Shown in pieces: positions 8,817-14,567 of a DNA stretch of 64,000 nucleotides. The stretch spans positions 6,386,001 through 6,450,000 of the forward strand of contig NZ_CP074371.1 of the NCBI RefSeq assembly GCF_018362975.1, given 5' to 3'. Source of the stretch: Nocardia tengchongensis (GTDB lineage Bacteria > Actinomycetota > Actinomycetes > Mycobacteriales > Mycobacteriaceae). The stretch's first letter is position 1, and every line of letters starts with the position of its first letter. Below the pieces are notes generated by a model. The model saw only the letters and a list, made by a program, of their open reading frames with translations. It searched no databases and was not told where the DNA came from. A program made the position numbers and the translations under genes.

Positions 8817-8826
8817 CGTGGAGCCC

Positions 8827-9285
8827 ATGAGTTCCGACGCCGAACCCACCACGGACGCGACCGGCACGCCGGTTCCGCGGATCCAGCTCACGCCGCAGGA
8901 GTGGCGGACCAAGCTGACCCCCGACGAATACCGGGTGCTGCGCGAAGCGGGCACCGAGCGCGCGTTCACCGGCGAATACACCGACACCGAGACCGAGGGC
9001 GTCTACTCCTGCCGGGCCTGCGGCTCCGAATTGTTCCGCAGCAGCGAGAAATTCCATTCGCACTGCGGCTGGCCGTCGTTCTTCGATCCGGCGCAGTCGG
9101 ACGCGGTGGTGCTGGTGGAGGACAACTCCCTAGGTATGCGACGCGTCGAGGTGGTGTGCGCCAACTGCCACAGCCACCTCGGGCACGTGTTCGAGGGCGA
9201 GGGTTACCCCACGCCCACGGACAAGCGCTACTGCATCAACTCGATCTCCCTGCGTCTGCAGCCTTCGGAGGGTTCCGCCGGCTGA
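8827..9285 (+). CDS. msrB: Peptide-methionine (R)-S-oxide reductase MsrB
   Basis: The 152-residue protein has the complete MsrB fold. Zinc ligands are C62-x2-C65 and C111-x2-C114, the SEKFHSHCGWPSFFDP substrate region is intact, and the catalytic cysteine is C136 in RYCINSISL. It reduces methionine-R-sulfoxide in oxidised proteins using thioredoxin. The ATG lies seven bases after TAGCGT (8814-8819), which overlaps the aftC stop region, suggesting a separate leaderless start. The final 100 bases of this gene recur in altered form at 11631-11685 and 13615-13710. Confidence 0.95.
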   Translation: MSSDAEPTTDATGTPVPRIQLTPQEWRTKLTPDEYRVLREAGTERAFTGEYTDTETEGVYSCRACGSELFRSSEKFHSHCGWPSFFDPAQSDAVVLVEDNSLGMRRVEVVCANCHSHLGHVFEGEGYPTPTDKRYCINSISLRLQPSEGSAG

Positions 9286-9297
9286 GGCCGGTGCCGT

Positions 9298-11451
9298 TCA
9301 GACGACGCTGGGCTGCGGCGCGACCTGCTCGTCGCGGTCGGCCAGCTCCGGTTCGGTCGCGGAGGGACCGGACCGGAAGAGCTTGCTGGGCCACCACAGG
9401 TAGCGATCGAAATCGAGGGCGAGTGCGGTCACCACGACCGACCGCACGATGAAGGTGTCGATCAGCACGCCCAGCGCGACGGTGAATCCGAGCTCCGCCG
9501 CGAAGGTCATCGGGATCGATCCCAGCGCCGCGAAGGTGCCCGCGAGCACGAGCCCGGCCGAGGTGATCACCCCACCGGTCGCCGACAGCCCGATCAGGGC
9601 GCCGCGCCGGGTGCCGTGCCGCTCCGTCTCCTCCCGGATCCGCGTGACGAGGAAGATGTTGTAGTCGACCCCGAGCGCCACCAGGAACGTGAAAGCCATG
9701 AGCGGGAACGAGGCGTCCGCGCCGGCGAAGTGGAAGACGTGGTTGAAGACCAGCGCGCTGATGCCCATGGTCGCCGCGAACGACACCACGACCGTGGCGA
9801 TCAACAGCAGCGGCGCCACGATCGCCCGCAGCAGCAGCGCGAGGATGAGGAACACCACGAGCAGGATCACCGGCACCAGTACCCGGGAATCGCGCGCGGC
9901 GGCATCCTCCATGTCCTTCTTCACCGCCGTACTGCCACCGACTTCGGCCTCGGCGCCCGGAATTCGATGGACGACGTCGCGCATCTCGCCGACGGTCGCG
10001 ATCGCGGCGGCACTGTCCGGGCTGTCGGTGAGGGTGACGGCGATCATCGCGGTGCCGTCCTTCACCAAAGGCGGTGTCGCGGGCACGATCACACCGTTGA
10101 CGGTCGCCACTGCGGCCCGCACCTGGTCGGCCGCGTCGGCCCTGGTCAGGATGTAGACCGGATCGCCCGCGCCGGCGACGAAATGCTGGTCCAGCACGTC
10201 GGCGCCCACCATCGCCTGGGTGGTCTTGGTGAGGCTGTGCCGGTCGGGGACACCGTTCGCGCGCAGCCCGGTAATGCCCAGGGCGAGAGCCACCAGCACC
10301 AGCGTCGCCGCGATCCACACGCGCCGCGGTCGCACCGCGACCCAGTCGCCGATCTTGGCCCACAGCCCGCTCTCGGTGGGATCGACGCTGCCGTACTCGG
10401 GCATGGCGGGCCAGAACACCCAGCGGCCGTTGGTCTTTCGCCACAGCGTCCACATCCACGGACCGCGCACCAGCCGGGCCGGCAGCAAGGTGGTCATCAC
10501 CAGCACCGAGCTGAGGATGCCGACCGCGCACACGGGCCCGAGGCCCTGCGTGGAACCTAGGTGCGCGAACAACAGCACCAGCATGCTCACGGTCACGGTC
10601 GCCGCGCTGGCCAGGATGGCCTCGGCCGAGCGGTACCAGGCTTCCGCCATCGCCGCGTTCGGGTTCTCCCGTCGACGCAGCTCCTGCCGGTAGCGAGCGA
10701 TCAGCAGCAACGCGTAGTCGGTGGCCGCGCCGAACACGAGAACCGTGAGGATGAAACTGCTCTGGGCGTTGACGGTCAGGCCCGCGTGCTTCGCCAGCAG
10801 ATAGACGACACCTTGGGCGACAACGAGGGCGACACCGGCCGCGAACAGCGGCCGCAGCACCAGGACCGGACTGCGGTATGCCGCCAGCAGAATCACGATC
10901 ACGATCAGCAGGGTGATCAGCATGAGGCTGCCGCCCTGCGTGAACACCTTGCCCGAGTCCGCCGCATAGCCACCCGCACCGGTGACATGCACCGACAATC
11001 CCTGATCGTCGTGTTTCGCCAGCTCGATCATTCGATCGACGCTCTTCCCGAGACCGGCCCAGCCGTCCTGCGGCACATGAAGATTCACCACGAGCTGGAT
11101 CGCCTGGCCGTCGCCGGAACGCACCGGCGGCGAGATCTCGCCGGTCACGTTCTCCACGCTGCGGAACGCTGCCGCGTCGGCGTTCACCTTGGCGAGGTCG
11201 GCGTCGGAAAGAGCCTGTCCGCCACGGTCGTACACCACGACGCCGGGCACCGTCTCGTTCGGCAGTAGCGCCGCGGCGCGATGCAGCACGCTCACCGATT
11301 CGGCGTTCTTGGGCAGCCACGCCGACGCCTCGTTCGACTCGACATCGGTCAGTTTCTGAAACGGTAAGAGCGCCGCGACGACGATGAGCCAGAAGCCCAC
11401 CACCACCCACCTCGTCCGCCGGCCGCTCAGGAAGGCCGCCACCTTGGACAT
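9298..11451 (-). CDS. MMPL/RND-family lipid transporter
   Basis: A 717-residue protein with twelve predicted membrane helices in the RND arrangement: one helix, a large external loop (about 40-175), five helices, a middle region, one helix (near 395), a second external loop, then five helices. GAATDYALLLIARYR and FLVALGVDYNIFLVTRIREE are the two typical MMPL Asp-Tyr helices. MMPL proteins export lipids, siderophores or drugs in mycolata; the cargo is unknown. The ATG at 11451 has GGGGGG eight bases upstream; an adjacent GTG at 11454 is an alternative. An ATCAA-N5-TTGAT palindrome at 11469-11483 could be an operator. It converges on msrB and is absent from this position in M. tuberculosis. Confidence 0.88.
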   Translation of the reverse strand: MSKVAAFLSGRRTRWVVVGFWLIVVAALLPFQKLTDVESNEASAWLPKNAESVSVLHRAAALLPNETVPGVVVYDRGGQALSDADLAKVNADAAAFRSVENVTGEISPPVRSGDGQAIQLVVNLHVPQDGWAGLGKSVDRMIELAKHDDQGLSVHVTGAGGYAADSGKVFTQGGSLMLITLLIVIVILLAAYRSPVLVLRPLFAAGVALVVAQGVVYLLAKHAGLTVNAQSSFILTVLVFGAATDYALLLIARYRQELRRRENPNAAMAEAWYRSAEAILASAATVTVSMLVLLFAHLGSTQGLGPVCAVGILSSVLVMTTLLPARLVRGPWMWTLWRKTNGRWVFWPAMPEYGSVDPTESGLWAKIGDWVAVRPRRVWIAATLVLVALALGITGLRANGVPDRHSLTKTTQAMVGADVLDQHFVAGAGDPVYILTRADAADQVRAAVATVNGVIVPATPPLVKDGTAMIAVTLTDSPDSAAAIATVGEMRDVVHRIPGAEAEVGGSTAVKKDMEDAAARDSRVLVPVILLVVFLILALLLRAIVAPLLLIATVVVSFAATMGISALVFNHVFHFAGADASFPLMAFTFLVALGVDYNIFLVTRIREETERHGTRRGALIGLSATGGVITSAGLVLAGTFAALGSIPMTFAAELGFTVALGVLIDTFIVRSVVVTALALDFDRYLWWPSKLFRSGPSATEPELADRDEQVAPQPSVV

Positions 11452-11630
11452 CACGAGAATCCCCCCGTATCAACGCAATTGATGTTTTCGCAGGGGGTCT
11501 TCGCGCTTCGCAGCGTCTCCTTGCGAGGTCCCGGGCCCCCGGGTCCACGATGCATCGGGAGGTGGCGTCGACGGAAGGTGTTGTGATCAAGGCGACGGCC
11601 GCCGCGGACGGCCGCCGGCACGGATCGGGC

Positions 11631-11685
11631 TGTTCGAGGGCGAGGGTTACCCCACGCCCACGGACAACTGCATCAACTCGATCTC
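11631..11685 (+). repeat. Duplicated 3'-end fragment of msrB, copy 2
   Basis: Bases 11631-11667 are identical to msrB 9189-9225, then six bases present in msrB are missing, and 11668-11685 are again identical to the corresponding msrB stretch. Outside this the flanks are unrelated. Translated, it gives the MsrB C-terminal residues FEGEGYPTPTD-N-CINSIS with Lys-Arg-Tyr lost. It sits 8 bases past the desaturase stop, between the desaturase and MmpL genes. Near-identity means a recent copy event. The rest of the 11452-11692 spacer shows only the possible MmpL operator. Confidence 0.85.
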
Positions 11686-11692
11686 ACCGCGT

Positions 11693-12655
11693 TCACAGTA
11701 CGGGTGCGAGACCGTCGTCGGCCCTGGCCGCCTCGCGCGCGAGTAACCGGGCGCGCTGCTCCTCGAATCGGATGACATCCTTTTCGAGCTTCTCGAGGTA
11801 GTTACCGATTTCCTCGCGGATCTCTTCACCGTGGGCGGTGAAATCGTCGCGCTCGAATACCTTCCAGACCTTCAGCACCGGCCGCAGGACTTCGTCGAGG
11901 TGCTGGCGCAGATCGTAGATACCGTGCTTGACCATCAGCACGCCGTTGCGACGCCAGTTCGGCATGCCGTAGCCGGGCATCGCGAAGTTCAGCACCACAT
12001 TCCGGACGGCTTCGACGGCCTGGTCGGGCGCCAGGTCCATCGCCGCACCGGTGACATTCCGGTAGAAGATCATGTGCAGGTTCTCGTCGGTGGCGATGCG
12101 CGCCAGCATGCGATCGGCGACCGGGTCGTTGCAGACCCGGCCGGTGCTGCGGTGGCTGACGCGGGTGGCGAGCTCCTGGAACGTCACATAGGCGACCTGG
12201 TCGAGCACGCCGCCGAAACCCTCGGGTGCGTTCACACCCCGGGTCATGTGGACCATCCGGTCGGCTTCCAGGGCAACGGGATCGACGCTCCGGGTGACGA
12301 TCAGATAATCGCGCATGGCGATGGCGTGGCGGTTCTCCTCGGCGGTCCACCGGCCCACCCAGGTACCCCACGCACCCTCCATCGAGAAATTCTCGGCGAT
12401 GGTGCGGTGGTAGGAAGGCAGATTGTCTTCGGTGAGCAGATTCGTCACCATCGCGACTTTCGCCACTTCCGACAATCCGGATTGTTCGGGATCCCAGTCG
12501 ATTCCGCCCATCGCGGCGAAGTTACGACCCTCGTCCCACGGCACGTAGTCGTGCGGATTCCATTCCTTCGCGATGGACAGGTGCCGGTCGATGTTTTGAC
12601 CGACGACCGGTTCCAGCTCGGTCAGCAGCTCGAGTTGAGTCAAATCTTTCGCCAT
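11693..12655 (-). CDS. Acyl-ACP desaturase (DesA family)
   Basis: A 320-residue di-iron desaturase of the soluble acyl-ACP type. The iron ligands are visible as EENRH (106-110), a Glu near 161 in FQELATRVSH, and DENLH (190-194), giving the two E-x-x-H motifs. It introduces a cis double bond into ACP-bound fatty acids using ferredoxin and oxygen; mycobacterial DesA1/DesA2 feed mycolic acid precursors. The start is ATG at 12655. It lies head-to-tail behind the truncated symporter (56 bases) and upstream of the MmpL gene, inside a block flanked by msrB fragments. A lipid-export partnership with the MmpL is a guess from position. Confidence 0.9.
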   Translation of the reverse strand: MAKDLTQLELLTELEPVVGQNIDRHLSIAKEWNPHDYVPWDEGRNFAAMGGIDWDPEQSGLSEVAKVAMVTNLLTEDNLPSYHRTIAENFSMEGAWGTWVGRWTAEENRHAIAMRDYLIVTRSVDPVALEADRMVHMTRGVNAPEGFGGVLDQVAYVTFQELATRVSHRSTGRVCNDPVADRMLARIATDENLHMIFYRNVTGAAMDLAPDQAVEAVRNVVLNFAMPGYGMPNWRRNGVLMVKHGIYDLRQHLDEVLRPVLKVWKVFERDDFTAHGEEIREEIGNYLEKLEKDVIRFEEQRARLLAREAARADDGLAPVL

Positions 12656-12711
12656 GCAAAGCCCTCCGATGTCGGTGAGACCAACTTGCAGAACAATCGA
12701 TCGCGCTCACA

Positions 12712-13536
12712 CTAGTCCGTTGTCTCCGATGCCGATTCACGCGTCCGCGATTCCTGCCAGCATTCGATTCCGGATGCGTCCGCTATATCCGGGTTGTGCA
12801 CATATACCGGATCATTCCCGGCCCGCCGCTGCCGCTGATAATCGTCGAGCAGCCGGAACGCGACAGCGCCCAGCGGAATGATCGCGGCGAGGTTGACCAG
12901 CGCCATCACCCCCATGAACACATCCGCGAGATTCCACACCAGCGTCAGCGAGCCCAGCGCCCCGCCGAAAACCGCCACCAGCACCAGTGCCGACAGCGAC
13001 CGCTTGCCGGTGGCCACGATGGTGTTGGACTGCACCGCGTTGAAGACGAACCCGAAGGTCAAGGTGATGACCACCGCGAACAGCGCACCCATCCAGCGGC
13101 GGCCCAGCCCGCGCTCCATGTAGTAGGCGGGCCCGCCGCGGAAGGTGCCCGGCTCGCGGTCACGGACCTTGTAGAGCTGCGCCAGCGTCGATTCCACGAA
13201 GGCCGAGGCCGAACCCACGATGGCCATCAGCCACATCCAGAACACCGCGCCGGAACCGCCAAGGGTGATGGCCGCGGCCACGCCCGCGATATTGCCGGTC
13301 CCGACCCGGGCCGCGGCGGAGATGGTGAACGCTCCGAACGCCGACACCGGGCGTTTGCCGTCCTCGCCCGCTTCGGTGCGCTCGGTGATGGAACGAAACA
13401 TCTCCGGCAGCAGGCTCAGCTGCACTATCCGGCTGCGCCAGGTGAAGTACAACCCGGCCGCGATCACGATGGGGATCAGCAACCACGTCCAGAAGACGTC
13501 ATTGATATGCACGATGGCGGAATCGAGTGCGTCCAC
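12712..13536 (-). pseudogene. Sodium:alanine symporter (AGCS family) with a large internal in-frame deletion
   Basis: The N-terminal 175 residues match AGCS symporters, with AFGAFTISAAARVGTGNIAGVAAAI and GGPAYYMERGLG. Directly after TIVATGKR the sequence jumps to the C-terminal family end, LGSLTLVWNLADVFMGVMALVNL and a charged tail. Family members are about 480-500 residues long; this one has 274, so roughly 200 residues covering several central helices are missing without loss of frame. The product could not form the usual transport core. I read it as a decayed gene left by an internal deletion. Its 5' side is next to msrB fragment copy 3. Confidence 0.8.
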
Positions 13537-13614
13537 ACAATCAGGCTATCGACTGGCAACCGTCAGATGCGGATACTCAATACCGGCCAGTCGCATTAAT
13601 TGGCAGCGTATCCT

Positions 13615-13710
13615 GCACGTTGTCGAGGGCGCGGGACATCCCGCGCCCACGGACAAGCGCTACTGCAGCAACTCGAACGCACTCCGGCTGCACCCCTCGG
13701 GCAGCGCAAC
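13615..13710 (+). pseudogene. msrB: Diverged msrB 3' fragment, copy 3
   Basis: In one frame this reads HVVEGAGHPAPTDKRYC followed by SNSNALRLHPSGS, matching the MsrB C-terminus HVFEGEGYPTPTDKRYC / INSISLRLQPSEGS, including the catalytic-cysteine context RYC. At DNA level roughly three quarters of bases match over about 95 bases, so it is older or from another lineage than copy 2. No MsrB sequence is seen upstream. It lies in the 275-base gap between the symporter relic and hemQ, exactly where msrB would meet hemQ if the block were absent. Nothing else is recognisable in this gap. Confidence 0.75.
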
Positions 13711-13811
13711 AGATCGAATCGCAGAAACATTAAGCGGCAGACCCGTTTCCGCGCATGCCCCGAATTCTGCGGGCAAGCGATCAGCCACCGCCCGGCGAAC
13801 CCACCCCGAAA

Positions 13812-14507
13812 TCAGGGCAGCGCGTTGATCAGCTGCTCGAGCTCCACCCGCGGACCGGTGAAGAACGGAATCTCCTCGCGCACATGCCGGCGTGCCTCGG
13901 TAGCGCGCAGATCACGCATGAGATCCACGATGCGGTGCAGTTCGGGGGCCTCGAAGGCGAGGATCCACTCGTAATCGCCCAGGGCGAAGGAGGCCACGGT
14001 GTTGGCGCGCACGTCCGGGTAGTCGCGGGCGGCCTTGCCGTGATCGGCGAGCATCTTGCGACGGTCCTCGTCGGGCAGCAGGTACCAGTCGTAGGAGCGC
14101 ACGAACGGGTACACGCAGATGTAGTTGCCCGCCTCCTCGCCCGCCAGGAACGCGGGGATGTGGGACTTGTTGAACTCGGCCGGGCGGTGCAGCGCGGCCT
14201 GGCTCCACACCGGGTTCGAGATCTGACCCAGCTCGGTGACGCGACGGAAGTCGGCGTACGCGGCCTGCAGATCCTCGATCTTCTCCGCGTGCCACCAGAT
14301 CATGAAGTCGGCGTCGGCGCGCAGACCGGCGACATCGTAGATGCCGCGGACCACCACGCCGCGCTCCTCCAGCGACTCGAAGAAGGCGGTCGCCTCCTTG
14401 ACCGCGGCCTTGCGGTCCTCGCCGAGCACGCCGGGCTCCACCTGGAACACCGAGAACATGAGGTAGCGGATGGTGTCGTTGAGGGCCTTGAAGTCGAGTC
14501 GCGCCAT
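13812..14507 (-). CDS. hemQ: Coproheme decarboxylase HemQ
   Basis: The 231-residue protein is a chlorite-dismutase-fold HemQ, closely matching M. tuberculosis Rv2676c through [30 protein letters not shown] residues, [36 protein letters not shown] and [13 protein letters not shown]. The Tyr in the [10 protein letters not shown] stretch is the expected catalytic residue. It oxidatively decarboxylates coproheme to haem b, the last step of the coproporphyrin-dependent pathway of Gram-positives. The ATG at 14507 (MARLDF) was chosen because it matches mycobacterial HemQ and has GGGG just upstream; an ATG nine bases earlier lacks a site. hemY and hemE follow in the same orientation beyond a TetR/PLP insertion. 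Confidence 0.95.
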
Positions 14508-14567
14508 GAACCCCATCGTGCCACTGCGCCCGAACCCGCCCTGAATCGGGCAGGGCGGACACGGGGG

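What the first reader, a model, noticed from the sequence alone, without database searches (positions are those of the whole stretch)
9186..13710. Three 3'-end copies of msrB bracket an inserted MmpL-desaturase-symporter block
The end of msrB (9186-9285) recurs at 11631-11685 (37 + 18 identical bases around a 6-base loss) and, diverged, at 13615-13710. Copy 2 separates the MmpL gene from the desaturase-symporter pair, and copy 3 lies against hemQ, the expected neighbour of msrB. Gene blocks ended by repeats of a host gene's 3' end are the footprint of elements that integrate there and restore the gene. No integrase remains, so it may be an old, degraded tandem insertion, or repeated local recombination.
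Basis: partly seen in the sequence, partly recalled or inferred. Interest (0 to 1): 0.8.

Follow-up and report, generated by a model that had tools for sequence, protein, structure and literature searches.

The report
Mobile-DNA landing site at msrB's end
In Nocardia bacteria, foreign DNA blocks repeatedly insert at the very end of a repair gene (msrB) and rebuild that end as they arrive; the stretch examined here appears to hold two old, worn-down blocks side by side.

Summary
Of 144 congeners (this one included) with msrB and hemQ on one contig, 116 have at most 300 bp between them; 23 have 1.35-133 kb. Beside hemQ, 18 of 25 genomes tested keep the displaced native msrB tail, while msrB carries a replacement tail (GS.S-like: 21 of 23 occupied, 0 of 116 empty; pattern chosen after viewing). 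One congener has a 133-kb island with an intact tyrosine integrase 53 bp from msrB, a TrwC relaxase and a TraG/TraD coupling protein; three others keep pieces of that integrase beside msrB. So msrB's 3' end is very probably the integration site of an ICE-type family. In the window, copy 3 is the old native end, copy 2 the former msrB junction of the desaturase unit (collinear with a one-unit congener), copy 1 is msrB with an imported tail: two stacked units, integrase lost. The kind of element is known; the papers I searched did not report this site.

The parts
8818..9285 (+). msrB (likely start ATG at 8827), target gene; SelR domain (residues 33-149 of 155) lies before most of the replaced tail (LRLQPSEGSAG*)
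   Evidence: Pfam PF01641, TIGR00357; tail class
9183..9285 (+). copy 1: current 3' end of msrB with imported tail (attL-like side)
9298..11454 (-). unit 1 cargo: MmpL-family transporter, stop codon 12 bp from the msrB stop
   Evidence: PF03176 E 6e-115
11631..11692 (+). copy 2: junction between units; former msrB 3' end of the one-unit state
   Evidence: 37/37 identity; profile E 2e-13; window 11631 to about 12700 collinear with msrB end + desaturase of L039/G027, 83.7% over 1108 nt
11693..12655 (-). unit 2 cargo: fatty acid desaturase (acyl-ACP type by family)
   Evidence: PF03405 E 4e-70; 87% orthologue at the same site in G027, 84% at the same site in G129, at other loci in other species
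12712..13536 (-). unit 2 cargo: AGCS sodium:alanine symporter, internally shortened (probable pseudogene)
   Evidence: PF01235 in two stretches; TIGR00835 below its cut-off
13615..13775 (+). copy 3: displaced native msrB 3' end followed by native downstream sequence (attR-like side)
   Evidence: 83% to msrB, E 1e-17; aligns to msrB tail plus spacer of empty site G025, score 147 vs 33 best of 5 shuffles
13812..14516 (-). hemQ, the native convergent neighbour of msrB
   Evidence: PF06778; at most 300 bp from msrB in 116 of 144 genomes

Best explanation
The 3' end of msrB is the chromosomal attachment site of a family of tyrosine-integrase elements (ICEs and their decayed derivatives) in Nocardia. 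On entry the element recombines inside the last ~60-100 nt of msrB, supplies a new tail so that msrB stays whole, and pushes the native tail with its downstream sequence out to the hemQ side. The window holds two such units in tandem. The desaturase-symporter unit came first (its outer end is copy 3, the more decayed copy). The MmpL unit then entered the rebuilt msrB end, leaving the former junction as copy 2. Both units lack integrase and transfer genes and would now move, if at all, only with a newly arriving element or an enzyme supplied from elsewhere (CIME-like). Shown: repeats, empty/one-unit/two-unit series, swapped tails, integrase beside msrB in relatives. Inferred: the act of integration, the order of events, the enzyme that made the window's own junctions.
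For: Occupancy series: empty G060/G119/G001, one unit G027, two units here. 23 of 144 same-contig genomes have >1 kb between msrB and hemQ. Thirteen extra msrB-tail copies, all in the intervals of 10 occupied genomes; their left limits cluster at profile positions 87-92 (class I; one weak copy, G129 c3, at 102) or 46-53 (class II: window, G027, G024). Displaced native tail near hemQ in 18 of 25. Tail swap: residue before the tail's P is not H or N in 21 of 23 occupied vs 26 of 116 empty, Fisher P 5e-10, not corrected for relatedness; GS.S-like endings 21 of 23 vs 0 of 116. Window msrB body is nearest G027, G001, G119, but its last 36 nt are nearest G129, G076, G093, all occupied. Intact integrase at msrB in the 133-kb island of G011, with relaxase and coupling protein; integrase pieces at msrB in G019 (87%), G129 (87.5%), G090 (71%). 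Arms shared between inserts of different cargo: after the msrB stop among G011, G129, G126, G019, G090, G048; before the hemQ-side repeat in G011/G129 and G049/G100; the two units of G049 share 81 nt of att region but no cargo.
Against: No integrase or shared arm is seen in the window's insert. The window belongs to class II repeats (longer, starting ~40 nt further upstream), and I found no integrase in the three class II genomes' intervals (PF00589), so the enzyme may be another one, or homologous recombination may have acted. 7 of 25 genomes show no clear displaced tail within 700 nt of hemQ (G076, G046, G128, G113, G093, G090, G068; G093 has a profile hit further out). G141 and G113 are occupied but lack the GS.S-like tail; G027 and G100 are occupied but keep H before the P (one search list). 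Only five mononucleotide shuffles per genome. Excision or circles cannot be seen in assemblies.
Confidence: 0.9

Rival explanations
1. Homologous or illegitimate recombination at short msrB-tail homologies, without any integrase, repeatedly put genes between msrB and hemQ (a passive convergent-gene hot spot).
For: The window's outer repeats are long (about 100 nt) and it has no integrase; no PF00589 match lies in the interval of 9 of 9 occupied genomes with full lists; the commonest families among insert ORFs are metabolic and regulatory (25 commonest listed).
Against: Repeat limits fall at two narrow positions in inserts of different content; replaced tails are alike across species; integrase or its pieces adjacent to msrB in 4 genomes; attachment arms shared with different cargo.
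Confidence: 0.08
2. Tandem duplication of msrB in the ancestor left partial paralogue remnants; the genes between are ancient residents.
For: Copies 2 and 3 are co-oriented with msrB.
Against: Close congeners G060, G119, G001 and G025 have 75-177 bp between msrB and hemQ and no second tail hit; only about the last 60-100 nt of msrB recur; inserts differ between species.
Confidence: 0.01
3. Assembly artefact.
For: Direct repeats can mislead short-read assembly (general knowledge).
Against: Genome is one contig of 8.0 Mb; like architecture in separately assembled genomes, including the collinear G027.
Confidence: 0.01

Closest known systems
PAISt of Streptomyces turgidiscabies (PMC4057263; abstract and section list seen)
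   Same: Actinobacterial ICE/island at the 3' end of a protein-coding gene (bacA), tyrosine recombinase, internal repeat allowing modular excision, relatives fixed by erosion of integrase and sites.
   Different: Target is bacA with an 8-bp palindrome; here msrB, repeats of ~60-100 nt, and the gene's tail is replaced.
CIMEs and tandem accretion in Streptococcus salivarius ICE/IME loci (PMC7563491; passages seen)
   Same: Decayed integrase-less cargo units of 1.2-13 kb and 130-220-bp microCIMEs, in composite structures at 3' ends of rpmG, rpsI, fda, rplL, able to move only with an element that integrates beside them.
   Different: Other phylum and targets; the window array has no ICE beside it, and mobilisation is untested.
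AICEs of actinobacteria (PMC3218068; passages seen)
   Same: Site-specific integrating conjugative elements of actinobacteria; Frankia ones with tyrosine recombinases use 3' ends of tRNA genes.
   Different: G011's island carries a TrwC-type relaxase and a TraG/TraD-type coupling protein, and its target is a protein gene; the word msrB occurs 0 times in that paper's main text.

Membership tests
Cis-mobilizable element (CIME), for the window's two units | retains flanking att-type repeats | tested here: met
   copies 1, 2, 3
Cis-mobilizable element (CIME), for the window's two units | lacks recombination and transfer genes | tested here: met
   no PF00589 match in the interval in the full list for G000; its three genes are MmpL, desaturase, symporter
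Cis-mobilizable element (CIME), for the window's two units | derives by deletion from an ICE/IME of the same site | tested here: inconclusive
   ICE-like island at the same site in G011, but the window has class II repeat limits and no arm shared with it
Cis-mobilizable element (CIME), for the window's two units | moves with an element that integrates next to it | not testable with these tools
   needs mating or excision assays
Tyrosine-integrase genomic island restoring the target's 3' end | target tail duplicated at the far edge, gene left whole | tested here: met
   SelR domain intact
Tyrosine-integrase genomic island restoring the target's 3' end | integrase gene inside, next to att | tested here: not met
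   absent in the window; present in G011, pieces in G019, G129, G090
ICE (island of G011, not the window) | integrase, relaxase and coupling protein | tested here: met
   PF00589, TrwC and TraG-D_C
ICE (island of G011, not the window) | complete type IV secretion set incl. VirB4-type ATPase | not tested
   only the 25 commonest of 115 families were listed for 70 of 84 called ORFs; ten large ORFs were listed in full

The most novel reading that the evidence does not exclude
The class II units (window, G027, G024) are a cassette-like system: one- or few-gene blocks without their own enzyme, each ending at an msrB-tail site, inserted and stacked at msrB by an integrase supplied from elsewhere, so that msrB works as a natural gene-capture site for the genus. 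The lone desaturase in G027 and the desaturase-then-MmpL series here would be successive captures rather than eroded ICEs.
Probability: 0.1. Interest if true: 0.75.

Novelty: new member of a known kind. Interest (0 to 1): 0.5.

Why it matters
It defines a recurrent integration site (msrB 3' end) in Nocardia, occupied in about one congener in six (23 of 144), with a candidate integrase and a simple read-out: the msrB tail sequence suggests whether the site is occupied. It explains how envelope and lipid genes (MmpL, desaturase) came to lie between msrB and hemQ, and it offers an integrase/attB pair that could be tested for actinobacterial vectors.

Tried and rejected
Rejected: chance similarity; paralogue remnants (empty relatives); assembly artefact (single contig; G027 collinear). 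Gene conversion between copies 1 and 2 as the cause of their 37/37 identity is not needed: G027 msrB has the same 37 bases.

Led nowhere: PDB sequence search with the integrase, no match at E <= 0.01; phage and plasmid collections, one 28% Thermus phage match and none; first scan of genome contigs with the single integrase, no relative; ARAGORN and Rfam scans for RNA targets of the sister integrases: one tRNA match in L136 by Rfam, and one tRNA-Met in L045 by ARAGORN, neither taken as a target.

Limits: Pfam scans of alignments A1 and A2 covered 196 of the 202 ORFs called in 27 loci of 20 occupied genomes (five long ones and one duplicate left out) and list only the 25 commonest families, so a singleton recombinase could be hidden. 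A4 held 70 of 84 ORFs of the G011 island. Serine recombinase families were not searched on their own. The ORF caller was my own GC-based script. The tail pattern was written after seeing the tails and includes variants (SPTS, ESTS, DSTS, GSPG endings). One search scores for G092, G099 and G041 had no shuffles of their own. Of the four genomes left out of the 144 (G055, G066, G068, G069), two have the GS.S-like tail (G066 and G068 by the printed tails).
Full report
OBSERVATION. The three copies exist as described, and in the whole genome the msrB end has no other strong match. The window is part of an 8.0-Mb single-contig genome (G000:C1:6386001-6450000).

POPULATION OF THE SITE. msrB was found in 148 of 148 genomes of the genus (this one included) and hemQ in 147 of 148; a search asking for up to 400 genomes of the genus covered 150. 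They lie on one contig in 144 (G066, G068 and G069 are split, G055 has no hemQ hit). Of the 144, 116 have at most 300 bp between the genes, 5 have 456-964 bp (all with native-type tails), and 23 have more than 1 kb, from 1.35 kb (G027) to 133 kb (G011) (with distances).

REPEATS. A profile built from 61 msrB ends (60 loci and the window) was run on the window plus L039-L128. Besides msrB itself it found 13 tail copies, all in msrB-hemQ intervals of 10 occupied genomes (G000, G129 and G049 two each; G027, G024, G107, G100, G048, G093 and G011 one each), plus one stray hit at E 0.1 (L091, beyond hemQ). The left ends of the copies fall at profile positions 87-92 (class I; the weak G129 c3 at 102) or 46-53 (class II: G000, G027, G024). 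Narrow limits in inserts of different content are what site-specific recombination leaves.

WHICH END IS NATIVE. In one search the hemQ-most copies go on into sequence like that which follows msrB in empty genomes. One search tested 700 nt beside hemQ in 25 genomes (all 23 occupied ones plus split G066 and G068) against the msrB tail plus spacer of genomes with under 300 bp: 18 of 25 matched far above five shuffles (scores 82-235; best shuffle of any genome 37); G076, G046, G128, G113, G093, G090 and G068 did not. For G019 the best match was the displaced tail of G092. So in most occupied genomes the native 3' end has been pushed toward hemQ, and the tail now on msrB is imported. In line with that, 21 of 23 occupied genomes end msrB in a GS.S-like tail against 0 of 116 empty ones (exceptions G141, G113). 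I wrote that pattern after seeing the tails. The simpler rule (residue before P not H or N) gives 21 of 23 (exceptions G027, G100) vs 26 of 116, Fisher P 5e-10, without correction for relatedness. The window's msrB body is closest to G027, G001 and G119, but its last 36 nt are closest to G129, G076 and G093, all occupied; the first empty genome (G078) shares a lower rank, 0.81 against 0.89 for the best. G092 and G099, with 231 bp between the genes, keep a displaced native-like tail about 100 bp after msrB, like a micro-footprint; G041 did not.

THE ENZYME. In G011 (Nocardia sp. NBC_01327 by source name and contig length) an intact tyrosine integrase (P0001, 479 aa as called, 418 aa in the public record; PF00589, E 3e-11) lies tail to tail with msrB, 53 bp between the stops. 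Arg229, Lys303, Arg371, His393 and Tyr404 (numbering of P0002) are invariant in the 10 aligned sequences; that these are the catalytic residues is my reading from the recalled motif. Pieces of the same integrase lie beside msrB in G019 (87%), G129 (87.5%) and G090 (71%). Among the matches found, those with at least 70% identity over at least 45 residues are next to msrB. Two shorter pieces are not: 30 residues (73%) in G129's second unit and 41 residues (73%) in L251. Homologues of 61% or less lie elsewhere. Protein hits P0003-P0008 (66-90%) have no genome context here and were not placed. The 133-kb island also has a TrwC relaxase with helicase, a TraG/TraD-type coupling protein and a primase-polymerase, so it is ICE-like.

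ARMS. The 120 nt after the msrB stop are linked by pairwise similarity above shuffles in G011, G129, G126, G019, G090 and G048, and separately in G046/G128. A 24-mer at +32 is identical in G011, G129 and G126, with 2 mismatches in G019 and no match within 6 mismatches in G090. The 110 nt before the hemQ-side repeat are alike in G011/G129 and in G049/G100, with a weaker link between these pairs. The two tandem units of G049 share 81 nt of att region at 95% but no cargo. The window shares neither arm.

THE WINDOW. Window 11631 to about 12700 is collinear, 83.7% over 1108 nt, with the msrB end plus desaturase of G027, the closest relative by msrB body. G027 is thus the one-unit state: msrB, desaturase, displaced tail, hemQ. 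In the window the MmpL unit sits between msrB and that old junction. Copy 3 (83%) is more decayed than copy 2 (37/37 plus a 6-base loss), as the order predicts. In a tree of 12 desaturases the window pairs with G027 (support 0.955); G129, which also has one at this site, pairs with G072, where the gene is elsewhere (0.923), so the gene may have arrived more than once. The symporter is shortened inside, a sign of decay.

MECHANISM AND LIMITS. Best account: integrase-mediated entry into the msrB 3' end with tail replacement, loss of integrase and transfer genes, and stacking of a second unit. The enzyme of the class II junctions in the window is not identified; homologous recombination or an integrase acting in trans remain open. 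No PF00589 match lies in the interval of 9 of 9 genomes with full lists.

KNOWN OR NEW. Stacked integrase-less units at 3' ends of genes are known in streptococci as CIMEs (PMC7563491, passages), and a tyrosine-recombinase island at a protein gene's 3' end is known in Streptomyces (PMC4057263, abstract). The search 'msrB' + 'attB' gave 0 papers; the listings (titles and abstract starts; three papers opened) showed no report of msrB as such a site. The library holds open-licence papers only. So: a known kind of element at a site that I did not find in print.

Noticed in passing
window 12712-13536: AGCS sodium:alanine symporter reading frame of 274 aa that matches its family in two separate stretches: an in-frame internal deletion, probably non-functional.
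   Followed up: partly
L235:10928-14005 and other G011 island loci (L234-L238, L108, L128): The 133-kb ICE-like island carries a fused glycyl-tRNA synthetase alpha-beta gene; families found once among its scanned ORFs include cyclodipeptide synthase and halogenase.
   Followed up: no
L100:69-734 (G126): Mutator-type transposase piece about 0.35 kb from msrB, where the integrase would be expected; it may have removed it while the arm stayed.
   Followed up: no
L045:3051-3125 (G129): A tRNA-Met gene inside the insert, about 0.4 kb from the internal msrB-tail repeat.
   Followed up: no
L241-L247, about 100-200 nt past the integrase stop: Sister integrases (50-54% identical) in 7 of 9 loci looked at lie beside a conserved reading-frame end 'Y[TI]EPILHRRRRE..', apparently the 3' end of another, unidentified gene: a possible second protein-gene target in this integrase family.
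   Followed up: partly
L115-L119 (G115, G053, G095, G134, G063): Five genomes with 456-964 bp between native-tailed msrB and hemQ: extra sequence that does not show this element's replaced tail.
   Followed up: no
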